From the NCBI GenBank assembly GCA_008360975.2, contig CM039179.1, forward strand, positions 51,814,561 to 51,878,560: 64,000 nt of DNA. Direction: 5' to 3'. Below the pieces are notes generated by a model. The model was not told the origin of the DNA. It made no database searches and saw nothing but the letters and a program-made list of their open reading frames with translations. This document shows positions 12,961 to 64,000 of the stretch, one piece after another. This DNA comes from Lichenostomus cassidix (taxonomy: Eukaryota > Chordata > Aves > Passeriformes > Meliphagidae). A program made the position numbers and the translations under genes. Numbering within the stretch: position 1 is the stretch's first letter; every line of letters begins with the position of its first letter.

Positions 12961-13105
12961 TTTACAGCTCAGTCTCAGTCCTGATCCTTCAGTCATGTTC
13001 ACTTAAGCTTCACTGAGTTGTTGAACTCTATCTTTTAAACAGGAAACTAAATAAAATTTCCTTTCTACTCCTCTAAGACAGAAAGATTTTTACTACTATT
13101 TATAC

Positions 13106-13605
13106 NNNNNNNNNNNNNNNNNNNNNNNNNNNNNNNNNNNNNNNNNNNNNNNNNNNNNNNNNNNNNNNNNNNNNNNNNNNNNNNNNNNNNNNNNNNNNNN
13201 NNNNNNNNNNNNNNNNNNNNNNNNNNNNNNNNNNNNNNNNNNNNNNNNNNNNNNNNNNNNNNNNNNNNNNNNNNNNNNNNNNNNNNNNNNNNNNNNNNNN
13301 NNNNNNNNNNNNNNNNNNNNNNNNNNNNNNNNNNNNNNNNNNNNNNNNNNNNNNNNNNNNNNNNNNNNNNNNNNNNNNNNNNNNNNNNNNNNNNNNNNNN
13401 NNNNNNNNNNNNNNNNNNNNNNNNNNNNNNNNNNNNNNNNNNNNNNNNNNNNNNNNNNNNNNNNNNNNNNNNNNNNNNNNNNNNNNNNNNNNNNNNNNNN
13501 NNNNNNNNNNNNNNNNNNNNNNNNNNNNNNNNNNNNNNNNNNNNNNNNNNNNNNNNNNNNNNNNNNNNNNNNNNNNNNNNNNNNNNNNNNNNNNNNNNNN
13601 NNNNN
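13106..13605. other. Assembly gap of exactly 500 N
   Basis: A round-number run of N, the usual placeholder for a gap of unknown length. Any frame drawn through it is meaningless. The retroviral pol frame is still open at its right edge, so the missing DNA should include integrase, the 3' LTR and the left insertion boundary. Confidence 0.97.
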
Positions 13606-15944
13606 CGAGCTAGAAATAACTCTCCTTTGTGCTGCCAGTTCAGATCCACCTGTGACACTTCCACCTTGGCAGCTCGGTCCACCTGCTCGTTGTTACGATG
13701 CTCTTCATTAGCCCGACTCTTAGGTACATGTGCATCCACATGTCGAACTTTCACAGTCAGCTTTTCTGCCCGGGCGGCGATGTCCTGCCAAATCTCAGCG
13801 GCCCAGATGGGTTTTCCTCTGCGCTGCCAGTTAGCCTTTCTCCAGCGATCTAACCATCCCCATAGCGCGTTGGCTACCATCCAGGAGTCGGTGTAGAGAT
13901 AGAGCCTTGGCCATTTCTCTCGTTCGGCAATATCCAAAGCCAGTTGGATGGCTTTAAGCTCTGCGACCTGACTCGATCCACCTTGTCCCTCGGTAGCCTG
14001 TACAGCTTGCCGTGTGGGGCTCCATACTGCAGCTTTCCATTTCCGATCTGCGCCTACAATTCGGCAGGACCCATCGGTGAAGAGGGCATAGCGTCTTTCA
14101 CTCTCCGGCAGCTCGTTATACGGGGGTGCTTCCTTGGCACGTGCTACTTGCTCCTCTACTTCTTCTGAAGATAATTTAAAAGTCTCACCTTCAGGCCAGT
14201 TTGTTATGATTTCCAGAATCCCAGGGCGATTCGGATTTCCAATACGGGCGCGCTGTGTGATGAGGGCAATCCATTTGCTCCACGTGGCATCAGTGGCATG
14301 GTGGGTAGAGGGAACCCTTCCCTTGAACATCCACCCCAGCACTGGCAGTCGGGGTGCAAGGAGAAGTTGTGTTTCTGTGCCAATCACCTCTGAGGCGGCT
14401 TGGACTCCTTCGTAAGCTGCCAAGATTTCTTTCTCGGTGGGAGTGTAGTTGACTTCAGACCCTCTGTAACTTCGACTCCAGAATCCCAGTGGTCGACCTC
14501 GGGTCTCTCCAGGCACCTTCTGCCAAAGGCTCCAGGACAGACCATGGCTCCCGGCTGCAGAGTAAAGCACATTCTTTACCTCTGGTCCTGTCCTGACTGG
14601 TCCCAGGGCTACCGCATGAGCGATCTCCTGTTTGATCTGGGTGAAGGCTTGCTGCTGTTCAGGGCCCCAGTGGAAATCGTTCTTCTTGCGGGTTATGAGG
14701 TAGAGAGGACTCACAATCTGGCTGTACTCAGGGATGTGCATTCTCCAAAAGCCTCTGGCGCCTAGGAAAGCTTGCGTCTCCTTCTTGTTGGTTGGTGGAG
14801 ACATCGCGATGATCTTATTGATGACCTCAGAAGGAATCTGACGCCGTCCGTCTTGCCACTTTACTCCCAGAAACTGGATCTCTCGGGCAGGTCCCTTGAC
14901 TTTGCTCTTCTTGATGGCAAAACCGGCTTCCAGGAGAATTCTGATGATTTTCTCTCCTTTCCCAAACACTTCCGTTGCTGTGTCCCCCCACACAATGATG
15001 TCATCAATATACTGCAGATGTTCTGGAGCCTCACCCTTTTCCAGTGCAGCCTGGATCAGTCCATGGCAGATGGTGGGACTGTGCTTCCACCCCTGGGGCA
15101 GTCGGTTCCACGTGTACTGCACACCTCTCCAGGTGAAAGCACACTGAGGCCTGCACTCTGCTGCCAGAGGAATGGAGAAAAAGGCATTGGCAATATCAAT
15201 GGTCGCATACCACTTTGCTGCTTTGGATTCCAGCTCATAGTGAAGTTCCAACATGTCCGGTACAGCAGCACTCAGTGGTGGTGTGACTTCATTCAGGCCA
15301 CGGTAATCCACTGTCAGTCTCCATTCCTCACTGGACTTACGCACCGGCCATATAGGGCTGTTAAAGGGTGAGTGAGCCTTGCTGACCACCCCTTGGCTCT
15401 CCAGATCCCGAATCATCTTATGGATGGGGGCCACAGAGTCTCTGTCAGTGCGGTATTGCCGGCGATGCACTGTTGCTGTAGCAATTGGTACCCGCTGTTC
15501 TTCAATTCTCAGTAGTCCTACAGCAGACGGGTTATCTGAGAGACCAGGCAGGCTATTCAGTTGTCTTATGTCTTCTGTCTCTACGGCTGCTATCCCAAAA
15601 GCCCAGCGATGTCCCTTCGGGTCCTTGAAATATCCACTCCTGAGATAATCTATGCCGAGGATGCATGGGGCATCTGGACCAGTCACAATGGGGTGTTTCT
15701 GCCACTCATTCCCAGTTAAACTCACTTCAGCTTCCAGTACAGTCAGCTGCTGGGATCCTCCTGTCACCCCAGAAATAGAAATGGATTCGGTCCCCACATA
15801 CCTGGATGGCATCAGGGTGCACTGAGTGCCGGTGTCAACTAAAGCCGTGTATCTTTGTGGGTCAGACGTGCCAGGCCATCGGATCCACACAGTCCAATAG
15901 ATCCGATTATCCCTTTCCTCTACCTGGCTAGAGGCAGGGCTCCT
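13606..15944 (-). CDS. ERV-L pol: protease, reverse transcriptase, RNase H (partial)
   Basis: An open frame of 779 codons follows the gag amber stop in the same frame, and no independent ATG is needed. Numbering codons after the amber: a retropepsin-type aspartic protease with the DTG active site at about 37-39 (bases 15828-15836) and a hydrophobic ILGID flap/strand element near 95. Then the reverse transcriptase, about 170-365, with first catalytic Asp in TIDIANAF (about 250) and the YIDD box at bases 15000-15011. A connection region follows. RNase H, about 618-765, keeps its acidic residues in TDGS (about 624), AELKA (about 662), YTDSW (about 686) and QVDRAA (about 756). The frame stops at the gap just after RNase H, where integrase should begin. 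Host genomes usually silence such genes; whether it is expressed cannot be told here. Group assignment is by domain order and motif style. Confidence 0.93.
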
Positions 15945-15947
15945 CTA
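15945..15947 (-). promoter_or_regulatory. In-frame amber stop separating gag and pro-pol
   Basis: The gag frame ends in TAG, and reading continues open for 18 codons to the protease with no frameshift. The next codons are AGG AGC CCT. Termination with occasional readthrough would give Gag and Gag-Pol, as described for gammaretroviruses and for mouse ERV-L. No pseudoknot was worked out. Confidence 0.8.
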
Positions 15948-17627
15948 ATCCTGTTTTTGGTGCACGATGTTCTTCTCCTGTAAATGTGTTCCTGAGGTTC
16001 CTTCAAGAGGATCAGTCATATAATCACTTCCATTCTGTCTGGAGTTCTGGCCACAAGAGACTGGGGCAGTGTTGTACCTAGATGAGCTTCTTGAGGTGGA
16101 TGTTTCTGTTTTCAATTCACGTACCCGGGCTGCTAAGGTGGAGGTGGGTTTCCTATCCCACTTCCTCATGTCTTCCCCATGCTCTTGAAGGAAAAACCAG
16201 AGGTCACGTCGTGGAGTTTGTTTTCTTTCCCTGACTGGAGTACGTCTGCTCCTGATGGCAGAGACTATGGTTGGTTTCGGTGTGGCATGAAAAAATCCTT
16301 CTTTGAGCTCTTTCTTTAGTTTCTGGTGGCTCTCTTCAATTAAGCTCCGGACTTGCGCGGCCAGGTTTGTTTCCACCGATGAGACCTGGGTCCGTAGTGG
16401 AGCGGTGACAGTGTCCTCATAAATTCTCAGTTTGTTTGTTAACACGCCCACCTGGTCTTCGCCTTCCCTCCACTGCAGTGTTGCCAGGTAACGAGAGTAT
16501 ATCTCTGGTCCGAGCCGTGCGAATCTTAGCCACATTTGTGAAGTGCACTGGACATTATCTGGGTTCTTGGGGAATCTCTCGTTGTCCGAGAAAATGATCT
16601 CTAGCACGGCCAATTCCCTCAGGCATCGGATACCTTGTTCTATTGTGTTCCATTTTCTTTGGTGCATCTGGAGGTCTTCTTTGCAGAGGTATCTGTCCCG
16701 TACACTTGCCAGCAATCGCCGCCAGAGGCTGAGAGTTTCCTGGGTTTTCCCAATCCCCTGGTCAATGACCACATCCTGGGACAGGGATCCCAGTTGCCTG
16801 GCCTCACTTCCATCCAGAATGGTGTTGTTAGCTGCGGCGTCCCAGATGCGGAGCAGCCAGGTCAAGATGGACTCATTCGTCTGCCGGGTGAATTCCCTCC
16901 GTAGGTCACGCAGCTCCCCCAGGGATAGAGAGCGAGTGATGATCTCTGGCTCTGTCTCTTCTGCTTGGTGAGATGGTCCTGCCGCATCCTCATCAGTCAC
17001 TGTGCGGACTGACTTGCTCTTGGATTTCTTTTTCTGGACGGGGGCAACCGCTACTGGCTTTGGCTGCTCTGATTCAGCAATGGTCTGTGTTGAGACATTG
17101 ACTGCTTGTTTGGTTCCTTTCCTCTTGGTAGCAGTTTGCATGGACGTGGTGCCTGCTGACTTGTTTCTTTTCTCCTCCTCTTCGAGAAGACGCTGTACAA
17201 CACCAAGTATTGCTCTGTTTCTTAGCATGAGGTACACAGTGCTGGTCAAAGAGAATAGAACTGACAAAAACATTATGCCATCCCTAGCATCCAGAGAGAA
17301 CTCAATGTTGTCAAAGATGGCTGTGCCTGGCCTGAAATGCTGGAAGAAACCACTCTCTCCTCCTAGCCCCAGAGGGTGGGTGCGATTGCTGAGGAGGTCC
17401 CAGACGAAGCAGCTCAGGTTAGGCCAGGCAGACAAAGTCGAGTATATATTCCGAATGGTATTCATCGCCTCACAGGTCACCATGCAATAGGCATAATAAA
17501 CCAATACAGCAATTTTCATGCCATGCCCTGATCGTAACAAGAGCAATACGACGGGCAGATAGTTTCCCATTTGAGGAAAGATATAGAGAGCGAGATAAAG
17601 CACCCATACAGATAAGCTGAGCATCAT
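15945..17627 (-). CDS. ERV-L gag with N-terminal membrane segments
   Basis: Intact 560-codon frame. The frame is open back to 17,720 through the PBS, but the first ATG is at 17,625-17,627, so I chose that start, only about 32 nt after the PBS. Residues 1-140 are unusual for Gag: hydrophobic stretches at about 3-17, 23-31, 37-52 and 118-136, with an NRT sequon near 81. Then comes a Lys/Ser-rich linker (about 150-235), then about 232-435, the conserved ERV-L capsid-like region (starting at a SLGELRDLRREF block, with WLLRIWDAAAN, LDGSEARQLGSL and LWRRLLASV). The C-terminal third is basic and Arg/Ser/Thr-rich. No CCHC zinc knuckle and no N-terminal myristoylation Gly were seen. The family relation to mammalian ERV-L Gag and the Gag-derived restriction factor Fv1 is established; the membrane role is inference. 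Confidence 0.88.
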   Translation of the reverse strand: MMLSLSVWVLYLALYIFPQMGNYLPVVLLLLRSGHGMKIAVLVYYAYCMVTCEAMNTIRNIYSTLSAWPNLSCFVWDLLSNRTHPLGLGGESGFFQHFRPGTAIFDNIEFSLDARDGIMFLSVLFSLTSTVYLMLRNRAILGVVQRLLEEEEKRNKSAGTTSMQTATKRKGTKQAVNVSTQTIAESEQPKPVAVAPVQKKKSKSKSVRTVTDEDAAGPSHQAEETEPEIITRSLSLGELRDLRREFTRQTNESILTWLLRIWDAAANNTILDGSEARQLGSLSQDVVIDQGIGKTQETLSLWRRLLASVRDRYLCKEDLQMHQRKWNTIEQGIRCLRELAVLEIIFSDNERFPKNPDNVQCTSQMWLRFARLGPEIYSRYLATLQWREGEDQVGVLTNKLRIYEDTVTAPLRTQVSSVETNLAAQVRSLIEESHQKLKKELKEGFFHATPKPTIVSAIRSRRTPVRERKQTPRRDLWFFLQEHGEDMRKWDRKPTSTLAARVRELKTETSTSRSSSRYNTAPVSCGQNSRQNGSDYMTDPLEGTSGTHLQEKNIVHQKQD

Positions 17628-17659
17628 GGTGATAGGATTTCTGAGTTTCCCCAGGTCGA

Positions 17660-17677
17660 GCCCCACTTTGGGCGCCA
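17660..17677 (-). other. Retroviral primer-binding site, Lys type
   Basis: The minus strand reads TGGCGCCCAAAGTGGGGC, 5 nt after the LTR end. It differs by one base from the site complementary to tRNA-Lys(1,2) as used by several betaretroviruses and lentiviruses. ERV-L was named for a Leu primer, so the primer type is noteworthy. Confidence 0.85.
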
Positions 17678-17682
17678 AAATA

Positions 17683-18118
17683 TGTCTTGGTTTGAAAACA
17701 AACCAGTGGGAGATCACAAGTCAAGATTGAAATTAAAAATAAGTGAAATAATACAAGGAAAAGCACTGACAAAGTCAGATACAACCTAACACCCTGTTAG
17801 GGTGGTGGTAGCAGTCCGACTGAAGTAGTCCAGTTGAAGCGGTGATCCTGTGAAGGTCTAGTCTCCAGCTGAAGATCCAGTAGTAGCTCTGGTCCTCTGG
17901 GAACCCAGTAGACAGGGCTAGCTCAGGCAGTTCCAAGGCCAGGTTATATCCAGGTGGGAACACCTGGCTCCTCCCTCCTCGGCAGAGCATCTCACAATGG
18001 GCTGAGATAAGTCCATGAGTCACACGGTGGGTCCCTGATGGCCCATTGCCTGTCATGCGGGGTGGGTCATTAGCAGGTGATAATAGCTAACGGATGACTC
18101 AGTGCATAGTGGTCAACA
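17683..18118 (-). repeat. 5' LTR of the ERV-L element (436 bp)
   Basis: On the minus strand it begins TGTTGACCAC and ends CAAACCAAGACA, immediately before a 5-nt spacer and the PBS. U3 carries a TATA-like GGATATAACC. No canonical AATAAA was seen in sense. The second LTR needed for dating lies in or beyond the assembly gap. Confidence 0.85.
17942..17951 (-). promoter_or_regulatory. TATA-like element of the ERV-L LTR
   Basis: The minus strand reads GGATATAACC in mid-LTR, about 170 nt from the LTR start. It follows a short inverted repeat (CAGGTGTTCCCACCTG) that could bind E-box or other factors. Position is right for a U3 promoter; activity unknown. Confidence 0.55.
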
Positions 18119-19912: not shown

Positions 19913-20557
19913 ATGGAAGGTAAAATGGATAAAACTGGTTTTCAGCTTGGGAGTAGCTTAGACTGGGGCAGGCCAATAGGTTATTTTTCAGTACTTCTGT
20001 TTATAGTTTCTATTGGTGTATTAGAAGCTGCCATTGGGAGCAAAATTCAAGAATGGAGGTGATGGTCTGACTGGAAACAGAAGAAATACATGAGAAAAAG
20101 TGAGATACAGTTAAGCCATACATATATAGTAAAAAAATTTAAATATTTCAAATAATTTAATTTAGGATGCTTCTGACCAGGCAACTATAATACAGTGAGC
20201 AGTGGAAAAGATACATAATTGTTCATTCATTTTTTTTCTTTTGGTGTCCCAGGAAATCATAATAAAAATGAAACATTTTTTTTTCTAGTTGCATGCCTCA
20301 GGTAAGAAAAATTATAGATTCTTCTCAAGTTGTTTGTCTTGAATAGAAAATTTAGGTGTAGTCTAGCTGCAGAAAGTTTGAGGGTCTCTATGAAATGTTA
20401 CCTGGTGAGTTAAAGACCAGCTGCTTTCTATTTTACATAGCTATTTAAATCAGTGTAGAGTAAGTAGTACTGCTGGCAATGAAGTCTAACAAAATTGGAA
20501 TCACAAATTGTCCCAGAAAAAGCTAGGGAGAGTTTAACTATATTTCAGATGTTTAAT
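19913..20557. other. Non-coding background
   Basis: AT-rich sequence with no gene or recognised repeat before the polypurine tract. Confidence 0.55.
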
Positions 20558-20714
20558 GGAAGAAAGAGAGAACGAGAGAAAGAAAGAGAGAGAGAGAGAG
20601 AAAGAAGGAAAGAAAGAGAAAGAGAGAAAGAAAGAAAGAGAGAGAGAGAGAGAAAGAAGGAAAGAAAGAGAGAAAGAGAGAAAGAGAGAAAGAGAGAAGG
20701 AGAGAAAGAAAGAA

Positions 20715-20786
<72 letters not shown>

Positions 20787-21051
20787 AAGGAAGAAAAAGA
20801 AAGAAAGAGAGAAAGAAAGAGAGAAAGAAAGAAAGCAAGCAAAAGAAAGAAAGAAAGAGAGAAAGAAAGAGAGAAAGAAAGAAAGCAAGCAAAAAGGAGG
20901 GAGGGAAGGAGGGAGGGAGGGAGGGAGGGAGGGAGGAAGGAAGGGAGGAAGGGAGGAAGGAAGGAAGGAAGGAAGGAAGGAAGGAAGGAAGGAAGGAAGG
21001 AAGGAAGGAAGGAAGGAAGGAAGGAAGGAAGGAAGGAAGGAAGGAAGGAAG
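20558..21051 (+). repeat. 494-bp polypurine tract (GAGA/GAAA then GGGA/GGAA)
   Basis: Nearly pure A/G on the plus strand, broken by only a few C (one near 20,573 and GCAAGCAAA motifs at about 20,834 and 20,884). Layout: GAGA/GAAA mix, (GAAA)n at 20.70-20.77 kb, a ~50-bp unit carrying GAAAGCAAGC duplicated at 20,831 and 20,881, (GGGA)n, then (GGAA)n to the end. Long Lys/Glu/Arg frames and Phe/Leu/Ser frames in all phases are artefacts of the repeat. Confidence 0.98.
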
Positions 21052-22975
21052 TCTACATATCTGAAAAAAAACAGATCAAACTAATCCTCATTTATCTTGA
21101 AATTGTCCAGTAGCTCTCAAAGCACTAAAAGATAAATTGAATGCCAGTTAAATGCTGATGGTTGTCAACAGCAAAATATCAACAAAACTTGAATACAGCA
21201 GTATGGAGTTCCCACATCAAACTAGCTAAGAAAGCAAGTCTATGTAATTAGAAATATGAAATTATTTTCTTTACTAGTTTCTAAATTATACCATTATGCA
21301 CCTTACCAAACTGCAATTATGACTTCTTTTTATTTTTTTTCCCTTTTACTTCTTTCACTTATAACTAATTGGGTAGTAGCTCAGTTCATAAAAAACATAC
21401 CCTAAGAACTCAAATTCATCTCCTATCCCTAACTGCATATTGTTTGCAATCAAAGAGGATATTAGAATTGTAATAATCTGTTTGCTATTGTGTTATTACA
21501 GAATATTATAAATGAAAAATATTTTCAGTTTTGCAGTTCTGCCAGTAGGTGGTACTAGCAGTTTCTAAATTTGATAATAAATGTCTTCAACTTGAGTATT
21601 ACACTTTTCTGTCACAGCAAATAATGTGTTTCTACTCTACTGAAAGCAACTTATTTATATTTGATGCACTTGCACTCAAGGGCAGATTTTAATTCAGTTA
21701 TTATTTCTTTCAGTGGTCAGGTCTGTAAAATATTCTTTAAAACACAGTTTAGAAATTATGTGACAAGTTATTACATCTATTAGTTAGATTTCAATTGAAA
21801 GATGATATTAAAATATATTTTATAAAAAGTTTCCCCAGTTTTACAGCATCTGAATCTTCAAGATACAGATCAGAATTCAGCTTTAAACTTTTTACCAATA
21901 TTTGCTGTCATGATTCAGAGGTGTCATTCGAGAAGTCCCACTGCTTCTTTTTAGTTCAATATACAGGCTGCTACATGTTTAAAAATTATGTGGTTTTTTG
22001 CTGTGTAGCTCTTTGAAGCATATGTGTTTACCCCACATGCTTACAAGTAGAATTCCTTTTTTTTTCCCTCTAGTTAGGTGATGGTGGGACCCAAATAGCT
22101 GCAGAGACACAACAATAATGCCTACAGACAATATTCACACAAGGCAAGGAAATTTCTATATAAGGCCAGAAGCCTTGAAGTGTGGCAATAGTAGCACTCT
22201 TGGCCTTCCTAGTAGGTGACAATAGATGCAAGAAAAAAGTTACTTTGTTGCAGGCTAGTTATCATTAATGAACTGAGATAAATACCTCTGTAAAACAAAA
22301 TAAATTTAACAGAATGTTAAGCTCCTTCTGAGACATTCTACAATTAAAAAAAAATGAGGGGACATTGCTAATTTGGGTGGGATTGAAACATATTTTCCCT
22401 TGGAAATATTAGAGATTTTTAAAAAAATCAACCCTTGGAATTACATTATGTAATGACATACTACAGTAACCTTCAAAGGTTTTATTTGACTCATAGAATT
22501 GTGACCACCATGTCAATTGTTCTGTCATTGTCACATTCATGTAAACAATAATAATTAAAATGACAGAAAGTGATGTTGTTAGCATGTACCCATTGTGTGA
22601 TCAGAGTTCACTCACTACCACAATGTGAAGAGGTTATGGATTCCTAAGCGGAAAGGCAAAGACAAGCTTATGTACTTCTTTTACAGTATCTGTAATGTCT
22701 TCATCAGGACATTTACTTCCAATATCAGACAGCTTTACTTAATAGTTGATATCAGTTCCTGCTTATATATTTTATGCGTTTTTATTGGTGAAACCAAACA
22801 GATTGTGTTCAAGCTGTCTGTTTCTACAGGTGTTTGACAATATCTGTAAAAGGATATGTACTAAATTTTGTATATTCTTTTGAATTCCATGAAAAATGAG
22901 TGATCTGTGATGGTTTACTCACTTGTCTGCAGACCATTGTCTGTCTGCAAACTAAGATTGTTCTTGTTAATTTTG
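21052..22975. other. Non-coding background
   Basis: AT-rich DNA, no gene supported. Frames of 70-73 codons at 21.8 and 22.6 kb have no recognisable features. Confidence 0.55.
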
Positions 22976-58727: not shown

Positions 58728-58797
58728 AAATCACAGAATCACAGAACAGTCTGAATTGAAAGGACCCAGAAGGATCATCGAGTCCAACACTTAAATG
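58728..58797 (-). mobile_element. 5'-truncated TguSINE1-like SINE tail
   Basis: The minus strand reads CATTTAAGTGTTGGACTCG, ATGATCCTTCTGGGTCC and so on, ending CTGTGATTCTGTGATT. It matches the SINE tail at 35.1 kb including the stretch just inside the head junction (AATGAA/CTT-TCCAAC side), so it is better read as a truncated SINE than a CR1. The tRNA head is missing. Confidence 0.6.
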
Positions 58798-59011
58798 AAA
58801 AATGCTGCAAATGTACAAATTACAAGCCAGGGGAAAAATAAAGAAAAATGAAGGAGACCTAGTGTGGAGATATTTGAAATTTATACTTCATATAAATGTA
58901 TTGTTTCCCTATGTAGTCTGAAATTTTGTTGCTTCTAAGGAAGATGACCTTGCATTTGTATTCTGGCATTTATAAGAAAACCTAAATCCCATACAGAATT
59001 GAGAGGAGAAT

Positions 59012-59406
59012 TGTTGTAACGTGTGTCCTGCCTGTCCCTGACCCCGCCCCCCTGACCCCTTCTGACTGGATGTGAGTCAGGACCGCCCCCCATCCCTAGA
59101 GATAAAATCCCCAGCCAGATCCGGAACAGCCTCTTTGGTTCTGGACTCATATGGAACCTGTACCCTCCCTTGCCTTCCCTTCCCCCTCCCCAGTCTCCCC
59201 ATTCCTCCCCTGTTTTCCTCAATAAAAACACCATGCAGACCAGGAACCAAACAGCTGCCTTTCTAAACCTGCAACGCTTCTACAAGAACCGCGTCTGACC
59301 AGCCCCACAGCTCGTGGCCATGGAATGACCATCCTGCGTGTTCCGGTTCTAGGGCAGCCCTCCCCCGCAGCAGGGGAGAGCTGCCTTCAGGTTCTGCACT
59401 GCTGCA
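59012..59406 (+). repeat. 5' LTR (395 bp)
   Basis: TGTTGTAACG to GCACTGCTGCA. A TATA-like AGATAAAATCC lies near 59,100. The poly(A) signal AATAAA at about 59,221 follows a pyrimidine/CCCTCCCC-rich segment, giving a short U3-R and a ~180-bp downstream part. CpG is sparse in U3, denser in U5. Confidence 0.92.
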
Positions 59407-59408
59407 AA

Positions 59409-59426
59409 TGGTGGAGAATGCGGGCA
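59409..59426 (+). other. Primer-binding site (Ala-like)
   Basis: TGGTGGAGAATGCGGGCA starts 2 nt after the LTR CA. The first nine bases fit the 3' end of tRNA-Ala(TGC type); the rest needs a one-base shift. tRNA identity is therefore tentative. Confidence 0.6.
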
Positions 59427-59439
59427 GCAGTAAGAACTT

Positions 59440-59780
59440 GCCTACACGCCGGGGGGCAGCGGAGCCCGCGGGAGCTGGGGGGCGGCGGGAGCCGGCGGTG
59501 CTCGGGGAACGGCGGGGCCAGCGGTGCGGCCGCGCCGGGCCGGGCCGGCCCGACCAGAAGGCCGGGCTGGGCCGAGCTGGCCGCCGGCCCACGGGGCCCA
59601 CGCCTCCCCGCCGGCCCGCGCGGGGCTGCGGCAGAGCGGCGAACACACGGCAGGGAGCCGCCGACGCGGCGGGACGCTGCCTGCGCTGCAGACGGAGACC
59701 ACCCTGGCCGCGTGGCCCGCACATGGGCGCCGCCATCTTGTGAGCCGCCATTTTGTGTCGCGGGCGCCCCTCCCCGGCGA
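59440..59780 (+). promoter_or_regulatory. CpG-rich leader with twin YY1-like motifs
   Basis: The most GC- and CpG-dense stretch of the window, inside the element downstream of the PBS. Two YY1-type sites, GCCGCCATCTTG (59,729-59,740) and GCCGCCATTTTG (59,744-59,755), are 15 bp apart. Overlapping Arg/Ala/Gly/Pro-rich frames on both strands (up to 203 codons) are composition artefacts. Role as promoter, enhancer or silencer target is inference. Confidence 0.7.
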
Positions 59781-60012
59781 GACCAACTCTGCACAGCCAA
59801 ACACCATCTCTGCTGTGCAGCACACGCGGTGGCCGCGAGCTGTGAGACTCTCTAAAGACACAGGCGAGTCCCAAGAAGAGGACCCTGAAGGGACTTGTAG
59901 AAAACTTGTGAAGTCTGTATTGAGTTGCTGAGGATAAAACAGTGACGAAGAAGACTGTAAGGGACCGGAAAGCGGTGACCAGTCTTGTCAGTCGGCAAAA
60001 GTCTACCCAAGA

Positions 60013-60300
60013 GTAAGAGAGGCTCTGGGGGTGAGCCGATAGCGCCTACAGTGCCTATTCAGGGAAATTTTCCGACCCTGGACCTCTGCTAAAGGTGTAG
60101 TTTGCAGCAGAGGAGGAGTGAATGTTTGTATGAATGTGATTTGGAGGCACCCCCAGGGGAGGGGGTGGGAAACGTGTGAATGGCTGAAGGCACCCCCCAG
60201 GGGAGGGGGTGCAGAGGTGTGAATGGTTGAGTCATAGAACACGGCAGGGTGTGGGGCTCTGTTTTAAAACCCAGCTCATTCTTTTTTATTTTAACCTTAG
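60013..60300 (+). other. Candidate retroviral intron
   Basis: Donor-like CAAGA|GTAAGA at 60,013 and an acceptor with a good pyrimidine tract (CTTTTTTATTTTAACCTTAG) ending at 60,300. This gives a 288-nt intron. No transcript evidence available. Confidence 0.45.
60145..60230 (+). repeat. Tandem duplication carrying twin G-rich hairpins
   Basis: Two ~43-bp units. Unit 1 pairs CACCCCC (60,148-60,154) with GGGGGTG (60,161-60,167) around AGGGGA. Unit 2 pairs GCACCCCC (60,190-60,197) with GGGGGTGC (60,205-60,212) around CAGGGGA. Each unit continues with GTGTGAATGG(C/T)TGA. Confidence 0.88.
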
Positions 60301-60320
60301 ACAGATTAACAAGTGTTGCA

Positions 60321-60380
60321 TTTTGAGAATTGGGCTAGAGAGGGCTTCCGGAAAAGGCCCTCTCTGCCCAATCCTCAAAA
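60321..60380 (+). other. Long near-perfect stem-loop
   Basis: The left arm (TTTTGAGAATTGGGC, then TAGAGAGGGC) at 60,321-60,345 pairs with the right arm 60,356-60,380. The stem has one A-C mismatch and one bulged T. The loop region holds the palindrome TTCCGGAA, which can extend the helix. Begins 20 nt after the putative acceptor. Confidence 0.88.
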
Positions 60381-60894
60381 AAGAAAGGTATTTTCTTTAG
60401 TTAAAACCCTTTTTCGAGTTACAGTATGTTTTGTTTACCCCTATTAATACCTTTCCTCCTTCCCATGTCCCTTCTTCCCTCCCATTCTGATAAGGAGGTA
60501 ACTAACAAGGCTGCATCCCGTCAAAAAAGACGCTGAGTTGCTACTGATTCTCTCAGGCGCCTTGCCAGTTCCCCCCTTGTACCATCACCCTTAAAAAATC
60601 ACTCCTCACCCCCTTTTTTCCTACCCTCTTCTTCCCCAAATAGCTCCTCTACCATGCTCTCTAAAAATTTGCTTTTCCCAAAATCCCTGTGTCTTTCTGG
60701 CTGTGTGTAAGCTCTGCCCCTCTCCCTGCACGTCAAAGCTGGGGGGGGCACAGCAGACAGCACAGCCCCGTCGCGCAGCAGAGCAGCAAGATAACCTGAT
60801 CTCAGCCAAGCAGCTTCAACTCCAGCCCTACTGAAGAAATTTCTACCAGCTCCAAAAGACTCTGACCTAGAAAATTTTTTTTTTCCTTTTGTAT
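60381..60894 (+). other. 3' interior of the LTR element, non-coding
   Basis: Pyrimidine-rich, with stops in all frames; no remnant of env or pol was recognised. It includes a C-rich/T-rich stretch at 60.57-60.65 kb and a G8 run near 60,740. Confidence 0.6.
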
Positions 60895-60909
60895 AAGAGA
60901 AAAAGTGGA
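60895..60909 (+). other. Polypurine tract
   Basis: AAGAGAAAAAGTGGA immediately upstream of the 3' LTR, the plus-strand primer site for reverse transcription; one T interrupts it. Confidence 0.75.
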
Positions 60910-60911
60910 TT

Positions 60912-61305
60912 TGTTGTAACGTGTGTCCTGCCTGTCCCTGACCCCGCCCCCCTGACCCCTTCTGACTGGATGTGAGTCAGGACCGCCCCCCATCCCTAGA
61001 GATAAAATCCCCAGCAGATCCGGAACAGCCTCTTTGGTTCTGGACTCATATGGAACCTGTACCCTCCCTTGCCTTCCCTTCCCCCTCCCCAGTCTCCCCA
61101 TTCCTCCCCTGTTTTCCTCAATAAAAACACCATGCAGACCAGGAACCAAACAGCTGCCTTTCTAAACCTGCAACGCTTCTACAAGAACCGCGTCTCACCA
61201 GCCCCACAGCTCGTGGCCATGGAATGACCATCCTGCGTGTTCCGGTTCTAGGGCAGCTCTCCCCCGCAGCAGGGGGGGGCTGCCCTCAGGTTTTGCACTG
61301 CTGCA
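60912..61305 (+). repeat. 3' LTR (394 bp)
   Basis: Same ends as the 5' LTR. Visible differences: one C deleted near 61,015, G/C in GCGTCT(G/C)ACC, C/T in GCAG(C/T)TC, two A to G changes in the GGGGAGAG block, T/C and C/T near the end. Identity is about 98%. Confidence 0.92.
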
Positions 61306-61387
61306 GAGAATTGCATAAAAAAATTAATAATGCATAAAACTAAAGGGAGACAAGGTGGGGTGGGGTGGTGAGGGGAGGTGTGACTGT

Positions 61388-61712
61388 CTAAAATTTCCTC
61401 ATGAAGGGGAGCAGAAGGAGGTGCAGAACTCTTTTCTCTGGTGACCACTGACAGGATAAGCAGGATTGATTTGCAGCTGCAACAGGGGAAGTTCAGATTA
61501 GATATTAGAAAACAGTTTTTCAGTGAGGGGATTGTCAAGCACTGGGACCAGCTCTATGGGGAAGTGGTCGTGGCCCCAACACTGCTGGTGTTCATGAAAC
61601 ATTTTAGAAATATGGTTCAACTTTCATTTTGCTCTGTATGGAATCAGGAGTTAGACTCGAAGATCCTTCTGGATCCCTTCCTACTCAGGACATTCCATAA
61701 ATCTGTGATTTT
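61388..61712 (+). mobile_element. CR1-X-like LINE 3' end
   Basis: AATTTCCTCATGAAGGGGAGCAG, CTCTGGTGACCACTGACAGGAT, GTTCAGATTAGATATTAGAAAACAG, TCAAGCACTGGGACCAGC, GAAGTGGTCGTGGCCCCAA, then the tail GAGTTAGACTCGAAGATCCTTCTGGATCCC...CATTCC. The tail is the closest in the window to the SINE tails at 35.1 and 58.7 kb. Confidence 0.88.
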
Positions 61713-64000
61713 TAAATTCTGAGAAATGGATGTTTTGATTAGGTTCACAGAGCTTGCATATCATCAACACTTTAAGCTGGGTAAATGAACCCATTTTGTT
61801 TCTATGCCCTCTTTACTGAGTAGAACCACAAAAGGCACATTGCTTTTGCTTTCTTGATTGAGGTCGTGTCTGGAAAAGAAAAATGGGTTAGTGTCTAAAA
61901 TGTGTTAGCCAATTGTACTTATCTTTATCTGTGTAGAGGAAAAGGTGTTCATGTGTCTTTACAGACCCACACCACTCAGTTGATAGATGTTGGCAATCTC
62001 ATTTTAATGTAACTGGGAACAAGGATTATGTGCATCCCAGAATCTCTGGTTTTGAAATAGATGCTATAGTTTGAAAAATAAACTAAAGAAATAAAAAAAA
62101 ATTCAGATATTACCTTGAAAACCACCCATAACCAATTTACATTTGATTTTATATATCAGTAGGGGGAAACTGTTTACTAACATGCATAGGATACCTATAT
62201 ATTCTCCTTAACAGATATTTTCAGACTCTTTTTATTTAACATTTTAACTAGCACTCCACCATCCCTTCTGTTTCCATGAGGCAAATAGTATACTCCCATG
62301 AAAGTGATGTTGTTTATCCTTTTTAATTACTCCAGATGATTTATCTCATCATGTGCATTACAGAAAGAACTGTCTTACACTGCTAGTTAACTCATATCTA
62401 AATTCCTTCTTTCCCACATCTTTCTGGAAAAAAAAAAAATCGTGCATTCTTCCTATTTTCATTTAGTACTTCTTACAATAGAAAATATTTGGAAGGTTTA
62501 TTAATCTCCATGCTTCATTGGACCAACTGAACCAGAGCTAAAGACAAAAAGATTTTTGTGAAAATGGTCTGACATTAATTTCTGCTAAATTACTGTCTTT
62601 TATTTATTGATCCTGCTCTGAAACATGTGATAAAACACTTCAGGGAAATAAGATAACCATTGTAAGGTTCCTGAGTGATATTATTCTTTTCAAATTATAG
62701 AATAGGCTTCTAAATACAGATATATTGATTAATTTGTTATGCAAATTGAAGGCAAGGACTTTCTATATTTTATTATTTTAATGAGTGAAGTGTCAATTTT
62801 TTTATCTGCTTGCATTGCTTCCCAAGTTGGTGTAACCCAACTTCTGTTTTAATTAAGACAATAATGTTTAAGCAGAACACCTGGTCTGATGAGTCTAGCT
62901 AAGGCCGAAATTCAAGAAGTCTTTACACACTTACACACAAGAAGTCTTTACTTAGGTGACATAAATAGACTCTGATAATAGCTTTCTCTCAGTCCCTTTT
63001 AATCAAAATAGAAAATCATAATATTGAAGGGCTATTTATGGTTACATTAATACCATTTAAGTAAGATTTTTCTGGTGGTCTTTGACAGGCTTTGCAGAAT
63101 CTTCTAGGAATTCCTACTTAGTGGTATCTCCCTAAGAAGGGAACCTATATTAGGAGCTTTTCTTTCCTCTTATATCAAACCGTCTCCTCCAGGCATCAAG
63201 TGAAACCACTTAAATATAAAATGACCTTCCTGAGTAGCTACGTACAACTTCTAACTTTTATAAACTATTGGTTATTCTGTTTTTTCCTCTATAACTATTG
63301 CTTGGTATCTAAACAGTAAGCAAATATATATATACACATAATTTCTGTTTTTTTGAATATTTACTATTTTCAAAATGTATCCTTATGAATCCAAATTTTA
63401 TGTTCATACCTATTTGATCATGAAGCTTCCCTAGTTTAATGCAGACTTCTTGGTACTCAGTAGAGAATCTGGTATTAAAAAATAATCAGTTTGCAACTGA
63501 ATTCCAATGTACACTTTCTATCTTATCAGTCGCTGTGAGTGAGTTTTGTTTATTTGTCTGTTGGTAAATTTTTTCTTTAAAGTCCTATTTTTCATTAGTT
63601 AATATTAAAAAAATAAAAAGCTGTCTTCATATAAGTTAAAGAAAATCATTATTATTGATGGTATAGTTGCTCAAAAAACCAAAAAAATCTTAGGAATTTT
63701 TAGAGGATGAGTAGCTACCCTCCCCAGGAAGTAGATTATTTAGATTATACCTGTGTGGTCTGTCATCATACACATTAAAAAGTCATATTGTATTTTTCAG
63801 CAGGCGTTTTTTTTTTTTCCTGGCCACTGAAAATTATAGTCAGGTATTAAAATTGGTCAAGTGTGGAAAAGTGTCATTAAGTCAAAAAAGGTCAAATTCA
63901 GAAGTTTCTATTTTGGCAGCTTGATTAAAAATGAGTACATTTTAAAAATTGCCACGTTATAGTGAAGGAGTTGAGTTTTGTGATAAGACATTGCCTACCT
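61713..64000. other. AT-rich non-coding background
   Basis: No gene or recognised repeat. A small tandem duplication (AAGAAGTCTTTAC) lies at 62,915-62,951. Confidence 0.55.

What the first reader, a model, noticed from the sequence alone, without database searches (positions are those of the whole stretch)
59006..61311. Compact LTR parasite that keeps only cis-acting retroviral signals
Seen: two ~98% identical LTRs, a perfect 6-bp target duplication, PBS, PPT and a 1.5-kb interior with no gag/pol/env. Retained instead are a CpG-rich leader, a splice-site pair, G-rich hairpins and a long stem-loop. Inference: a non-autonomous (TRIM/LARD-like) element of a bird retrovirus, recently mobilised in trans.
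Basis: partly seen in the sequence, partly recalled or inferred. Interest (0 to 1): 0.8.

Follow-up and report, generated by a model that had tools for sequence, protein, structure and literature searches.

The report
Gene-less retrovirus-like parasite, mismatched end repeats
This is one copy of a family of short, gene-less retrovirus-like elements in a bird-like genome; in the copies compared, the two end repeats look as if they were partly copied from two different RNA molecules, which may be a trace of a helper virus that was not found.

Summary
The element is real and the coordinates are exact: LTRs of 395 and 394 bp, 98.2% identical, 6-bp duplication, PBS, PPT, 1,505-bp interior without recognisable genes. 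It is not a one-off deletion. In the window's own 1.10-Gb assembly, 27 two-LTR copies (window included) are 2,257-2,331 bp long with 27 different perfect 6-bp duplications. The exact 18-base PBS occurs 75 times: 73 have a PPT-LTR junction 1.24-1.63 kb downstream, one sits at a contig edge with family interior, one is unrelated. No coding copy with this PBS or PPT junction was found; the helper is missing. The PBS looks like tRNA-Ala (isotype recalled).

Unexpectedly, the two LTRs of single copies share U3-R but hardly U5: at three U5 sites the left/right differences run one way (13:0, 19:0, 20:0). Textbook reverse transcription makes both U5s from one template. I infer that the right U5 comes from another co-packaged RNA, perhaps the helper's. 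LTR dating would then overstate age about 2.6-fold. The 27 copies were ascertained by LTR similarity; an unbiased tally was not obtained.

The parts
59006..59011 (.). left target site duplication GAGAAT
59012..59406 (+). left LTR, 395 bp, TGTTGT...GCTGCA
59102..59108 (+). TATA-like ATAAAAT in U3
   Evidence: motif match; function not tested
59221..59226 (+). AATAAA poly(A) signal; R/U5 border inferred shortly downstream, near LTR position 230-240
   Evidence: border is inference
59287..59406 (+). LTR positions 276-395 (U5), where the left and right LTRs of a copy are nearly independent
59409..59426 (+). PBS, identical in 27 of 27 copies; exact reverse complement of an 18-nt CCA-ended fish small RNA; tRNA-Ala by recall
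59425..59850 (+). CpG-rich leader
59729..59751 (+). two YY1-like cores GCCGCCAT, 15 bp apart (YY1 name recalled)
60013..60300 (+). possible intron: donor GTAAG at 60013, acceptor AG at 60299-60300
   Evidence: splicing not tested
60145..60230 (+). 2 x 43-bp tandem repeat with C-rich/G-rich inverted arms
60322..60379 (+). long stem-loop
60895..60908 (+). polypurine tract AAGAGAAAAAGTGG
60912..61305 (+). right LTR, 394 bp
61306..61311 (.). right target site duplication GAGAAT

Best explanation
One copy of a young, multi-copy, non-autonomous LTR retroelement with class II-type (6-bp) target duplications, working like the mouse ETn. Its RNA would run from R in the left LTR to the poly(A) site in the right LTR; a helper retrovirus's Gag and reverse transcriptase would package and copy it from a tRNA-Ala-type primer, and the helper's integrase insert it. 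Shown: anatomy, copy number, shared boundaries, independent insertions, no recognisable genes, and discordant U5s within copies. Inferred: helper proteins in trans; packaging through leader or stem-loop. For the U5 pattern (my confidence about 0.45): first-strand DNA started on a different co-packaged RNA jumps to this element's 3' end, so the right U5 is the donor's, while the left U5 is copied from the element's own RNA past the PBS.
For: 27 of 27 two-LTR copies with perfect, mutually different 6-bp TSDs and the same ends and the same 18-base PBS. 200-bp flanks shared between copies: none; the one flank match was a copy's own two flanks. 73 of 75 exact PBS sites pair with a PPT-LTR junction at 1,243-1,631 bp, median 1,485; 68 of 75 shown by sequence to hold family interior. 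Of 11 unpaired PPT junctions, 9 lie in short family copies and 2 are truncated or rearranged. U5: discordance within copies is 0.08-0.24 of the random expectation for LTR bins 1-240 (12 informative sites) and 0.66-0.96 for bins 276-395 (8 sites); directions at 366, 368, 375 are 13:0, 19:0, 20:0, label-swap p <= 5e-5; the left 383 allele is linked to the spacer beside the PBS (Fisher 1.4e-5), the right one is not (0.37).
Against: No helper found. tRNA-Ala rests on recall plus one fish small RNA. R/U5 was placed from the poly(A) signal, not from transcripts. The 27 copies were collected by similarity to the window's left LTR, which favours copies with such a U5 in either LTR. Direction is not perfect at other sites: 340 9:1, 383 7:1, 276 8:2, 286 5:0. 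The one further copy with both tails seen (L092 left, L122 right) does not carry the common right type at 366, 368, 375. Seven requests for an unbiased tally did not complete. Stem-loop variants are mostly one-sided, so covariation does not support its pairing.
Confidence: 0.86

Rival explanations
1. The U5 differences arose after insertion, by gene conversion from other LTRs in the genome.
For: LTR-only loci of both U5 types exist, and gene conversion between ERV LTRs is known (recalled).
Against: It would have to act on the right U5 with one direction and leave U3-R of the same LTR untouched; the left U5 keeps its linkage to the PBS spacer.
Confidence: 0.25
2. Intermolecular second-strand transfer, as proposed for HIV-1 in PMC5651808 (abstract, introduction and first part of the discussion seen), so that the left LTR comes from the other RNA.
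For: It yields proviruses with two different LTRs.
Against: It would make the whole left LTR foreign; here positions 1-240 agree within copies.
Confidence: 0.1
3. The U5 pattern is largely a product of how the 27 copies were chosen or of site-specific mutation in the U5 hairpin.
For: Choice by similarity to one left LTR; sites 366, 368 and 375 lie in an inverted repeat.
Against: Choice by similarity has no left-right direction; two of the copies (L058, L059) were brought in by a right-LTR hit and show the same direction; mutation alone would not link the left allele to the spacer.
Confidence: 0.2
4. A simple internal deletion of an ordinary provirus at this locus.
For: No genes in the interior.
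Against: At least 68 other or same-form places in the assembly.
Confidence: 0.01

Closest known systems
ETn of mouse with its autonomous partner MusD
   Same: Class II-type LTR element with no coding capacity, amplified with proteins from another element (passages of PMC6466679 and PMC7472051).
   Different: ETn shares LTR and primer with coding MusD copies in the same genome; here no coding copy with this PBS or PPT junction was found, and the primer looks like tRNA-Ala instead of tRNA-Lys.
2.25-kb corCorLTRK1b (ERVK) insertion near NDP in crows
   Same: Songbird ERVK element of nearly the same total length and recent (passages of PMC7341801).
   Different: LTR 296 bp against 394-395 bp; sequences were not compared and the passages seen do not describe its interior.
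Songbird ERV2/ERVK families
   Same: 6-bp TSD and TG...CA ends, the criterion used in PMC6523648 (passages).
   Different: Repbase and Dfam could not be searched, so whether this family already has a name there is open.
TRIM and LARD elements
   Same: LTR elements with PBS and PPT and no genes (recalled).
   Different: 2.3 kb lies between the two size classes as I recall them; animal host.

Membership tests
class II / ERVK-type LTR element | 6-bp target duplication, TG...CA ends | tested here: met
   27 of 27 two-LTR copies; criterion from PMC6523648
class II / ERVK-type LTR element | class II gag/pol phylogeny | not testable with these tools
   no such gene in the element
non-autonomous LTR family | many independent copies, same boundaries, no genes | tested here: met
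ETn-like pair | coding relative in the same genome with shared LTR and PBS | tested here: inconclusive
   Of 75 exact PBS sites 68 hold family interior by sequence, 6 more have short PBS-PPT spacing, 1 unrelated; 20 of 20 stretches upstream of gag hits show no similarity. Not checked: 10 of 15 one-mismatch and nearly all 46 two-mismatch PBS sites, and most of the 716 gag candidates.
TRIM | total length well below 1 kb (recalled) | tested here: not met
   2,257-2,331 bp
LARD | total length above about 4 kb (recalled) | tested here: not met
   2,257-2,331 bp
corCorLTRK1b | LTR of 296 bp and its sequence | tested here: inconclusive

The most novel reading that the evidence does not exclude
New copies of this parasite are regularly born with two different U5s: the left from its own RNA, the right from first-strand DNA begun on a helper RNA in the same particle. 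The right U5 is then a fingerprint, renewed at each jump, of a helper that is not visible in the assembly, and the rule that a provirus is born with two identical LTRs fails for a whole family.
Probability: 0.35. Interest if true: 0.82.

Novelty: new variant of a known kind. Interest (0 to 1): 0.62.

Why it matters
LTR-LTR divergence is the usual clock for insertions, and it assumes two identical LTRs at birth. If one part of the LTR is regularly donated by another RNA, ages are inflated: here mean divergence is 1.44% over the whole LTR (153 differences in 27 pairs) against 0.55% over positions 1-275, and the window copy falls from six substitutions to none. It would also give a way to read, from parasite copies alone, which RNAs shared particles with them. 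Separately, a songbird-type genome would hold an ETn-like family whose helper is not recognisable by primer site, which makes the helper a concrete thing to look for.

Tried and rejected
A coding remnant was sought with Pfam (10 ORFs), a protein search of one 209-aa frame (7,998 candidates scored, none at E <= 0.1) and shuffles: nothing. An Rfam scan and a tRNA scan of the window gave 0 matches. One LTR pattern in IMG/VR gave 0.

A protected, unmethylated CpG island was considered and rejected: CpG in the leader decays to TG/CA in 101 of 1,620 cells against 19 transitions in 5,284 non-CpG cells. Covariation support for the stem-loop was looked for in 65 of 66 copies: changes are mostly one-sided, one compensating pair in 2 copies.

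A partner was sought four ways: exact PBS (75 sites), PPT-LTR junction with up to 2 mismatches (84 sites), stretches upstream of 20 of the 150 listed gag_p24 hits, LTR tail followed by NNTGG (103 sites, 100 listed, coordinates only; three exact ones, on C10 and C32, by eye match no known PBS and were not read). A gag domain 1.9 kb from a PBS proved to be a nested insertion. L163 and L164 proved truncated or rearranged, without retroviral genes seen in their ORFs (by eye).

Literature searches that did not show this family or a bird ERV with a tRNA-Ala primer; for LTR strand-transfer precedents. Most hits were seen as listings only.

Full report
What is there. The finding is correct to the base. 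GAGAAT flanks an element at 59012-61305 with LTRs of 395 and 394 bp that differ by six substitutions and one 1-bp indel. Two bases after the left LTR comes an 18-base PBS, and a purine tract precedes the right LTR. Neither Pfam (10 ORFs), nor a search of one frame against the protein collection, nor comparison with shuffles suggests coding.

It is a family. The window's own assembly (1.10 Gb, 514 contigs) could be searched. With the left LTR as query, 472 candidates came up and the best 40 were scored. Of 30 loci cut out, 28 carry the same interior. Thirty-two wider regions were read: with the window, 27 places have two LTRs and 6 one LTR. All 27 have perfect 6-bp duplications, all different, and lengths of 2,257-2,331 bp. 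Of the 6 LTR-only loci, 4 showed a 6-bp duplication and 2 were not resolved by the motif used. Interiors differ by 2.6% on average, 0.2-5.6%.

No coding relative was recognised. The 18-base PBS is unchanged in 27 of 27 copies and occurs 75 times in the genome, with 0 for the reversed control. Of these, 27 are the copies above, one is L005 at a contig edge, and 40 more were shown by short stretches 0.8-1.1 kb downstream, or at the 3' LTR in one case, to hold the same interior; that is 68. One is unrelated (L076) and 6 were not read. The PPT-LTR junction with up to 2 mismatches occurs 84 times, control 0. Pairing the two lists, 73 PBS sites have their PPT at 1,243-1,631 bp, median 1,485; the unpaired PBS sites are the unrelated one and L005. 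The 6 unread sites are among the 73. Of the 11 PPT junctions left over, 9 are short copies without an exact PBS (one with a 500-N gap) and 2 are truncated or rearranged. So at least 83 short copies are indicated and no long one. This does not exclude a helper with a changed PBS: 136 sites match with up to 2 mismatches (control 1), and most of the inexact ones were not read.

Primer. The PBS is the exact reverse complement of an 18-nt small RNA of grass carp ending in CCA, printed in a primer table of PMC4698583 (passage). From memory this is the 3' end of a tRNA-Ala. A search for this species' own tRNA-Ala genes did not complete. In 20 stretches upstream of gag_p24 hits, a table of recalled primer prefixes marks 11 as tRNA-Trp, 1 as tRNA-Lys and 2 as tRNA-Gly-like, 6 undecided; none resembles any part of the element.

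The two LTRs of a copy. In the window copy all six substitutions lie at LTR positions 286-383. Across the 27 pairs there are 153 differences, 82 of them in positions 335-395 where 23.6 would be expected by length. Positions 368 and 375 differ in 20 of 27 copies each. At 375 the left LTR has T and the right C in all 20; at 368 the left has A in all 20 (right G in 19, T in 1); at 366 left A and right G in 13 of 13 base differences. Swapping left and right at random does not reach this (p <= 5e-5). For positions 1-275 the two LTRs of a copy differ by 0.55% against 1.9-2.1% between copies; for positions 335-395 they differ by 5.0%, more than left LTRs among themselves (2.9%) or right LTRs among themselves (3.7%) and nearly as much as left and right of different copies (5.7%). 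Relative to chance the discordance is 0.08-0.24 up to position 240 and 0.66-0.96 from 276 on (12 and 8 informative sites). AATAAA lies at LTR position 210, so this change falls about where R should give way to U5.

Reading. In textbook reverse transcription both U5s derive from the 5' end of one RNA, so an inherited left-right difference cannot arise. A minus-strand start on RNA A that is transferred to RNA B gives a right LTR with the U3 and R of B and the U5 of A. If minus-strand synthesis on B continues past its PBS into its own U5, which has not been consumed, the left LTR can keep the U5 of B. This predicts what is seen: shared U3-R, discordant U5, and a left U5 linked to the spacer next to the PBS (Fisher 1.4e-5) but a right U5 that is not (0.37). 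Donor and acceptor seem to be different pools: C at 375 is seen in 2 of 27 left and 22 of 27 right LTRs. The simplest donor is a helper RNA, but a subfamily with spacer AG and the same U5 type exists (8 of 39 further left tails, all with spacer AG) and could be the donor instead. PMC5651808 (abstract, introduction, first part of discussion) reports that first transfer can be inter- or intramolecular and proposes intermolecular second transfer in HIV-1; the latter would change the whole left LTR and does not fit.

Against this reading: the copies were collected by similarity to one left LTR; other sites are less one-sided (340 9:1, 383 7:1, 276 8:2); 7 of 27 copies show no difference at 375; and the one further copy with both tails seen lacks the common right type (L092/L122). 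An unbiased tally was asked for seven times and not answered.

Age. Whole-LTR divergence is 0.25-2.8%, median 1.5%; positions 1-275 alone give 0.55% on average and 0 of 274 in the window copy. I give no years, since the host and its rate are unknown.

Other features. The leader's CpGs decay like methylated ones. The stem-loop is nearly unchanged in sequence over 65 copies, and the stretch with the two YY1-like cores has the lowest diversity of the interior windows (0.0045); in so young a family this is weak evidence of function. Contig C32 holds 17 of the 84 PPT junctions although it is 24.1 of 1,101.5 Mb, and about 120 of the 150 listed gag_p24 hits by eye. That resembles the W chromosome described in PMC8310711 (passages); its identity is inference.

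Noticed in passing
window 13065-17720, minus strand: Two long open stretches (959 aa, interrupted by 500 N at 13106-13605, and 591 aa); by eye the first reads like a retroviral pol.
   Followed up: no
window 20483-21113: Long purine-rich simple repeat that opens long frames on both strands.
   Followed up: no
L122 (G000:C32:10835400-10836700): A copy of the element inserted directly upstream of a gag_p24 match, a nested insertion that at first looked like a partner.
   Followed up: yes
L165, L166, L170: Three copies share the same single-base PBS variant (17 of 18 bases), perhaps a small subfamily.
   Followed up: no
L163 (G000:C1:9863000-9864800): The 3' end of a copy followed by about 0.7 kb of low-complexity sequence that may be an assembly error.
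   Followed up: partly
L040: The 5' and 3' flanks of this copy match each other over 141 bp at 96%, as if it had inserted into a tandem repeat.
   Followed up: no
G000 contig C32: Strong excess of this family and of gag domains; looks like the W chromosome.
   Followed up: partly
window 58729-58800 and 61640-61720: Short CR1-like 3' ends flank the element (recognised by eye from recalled motif; one search shows the motif at 58729).
   Followed up: no
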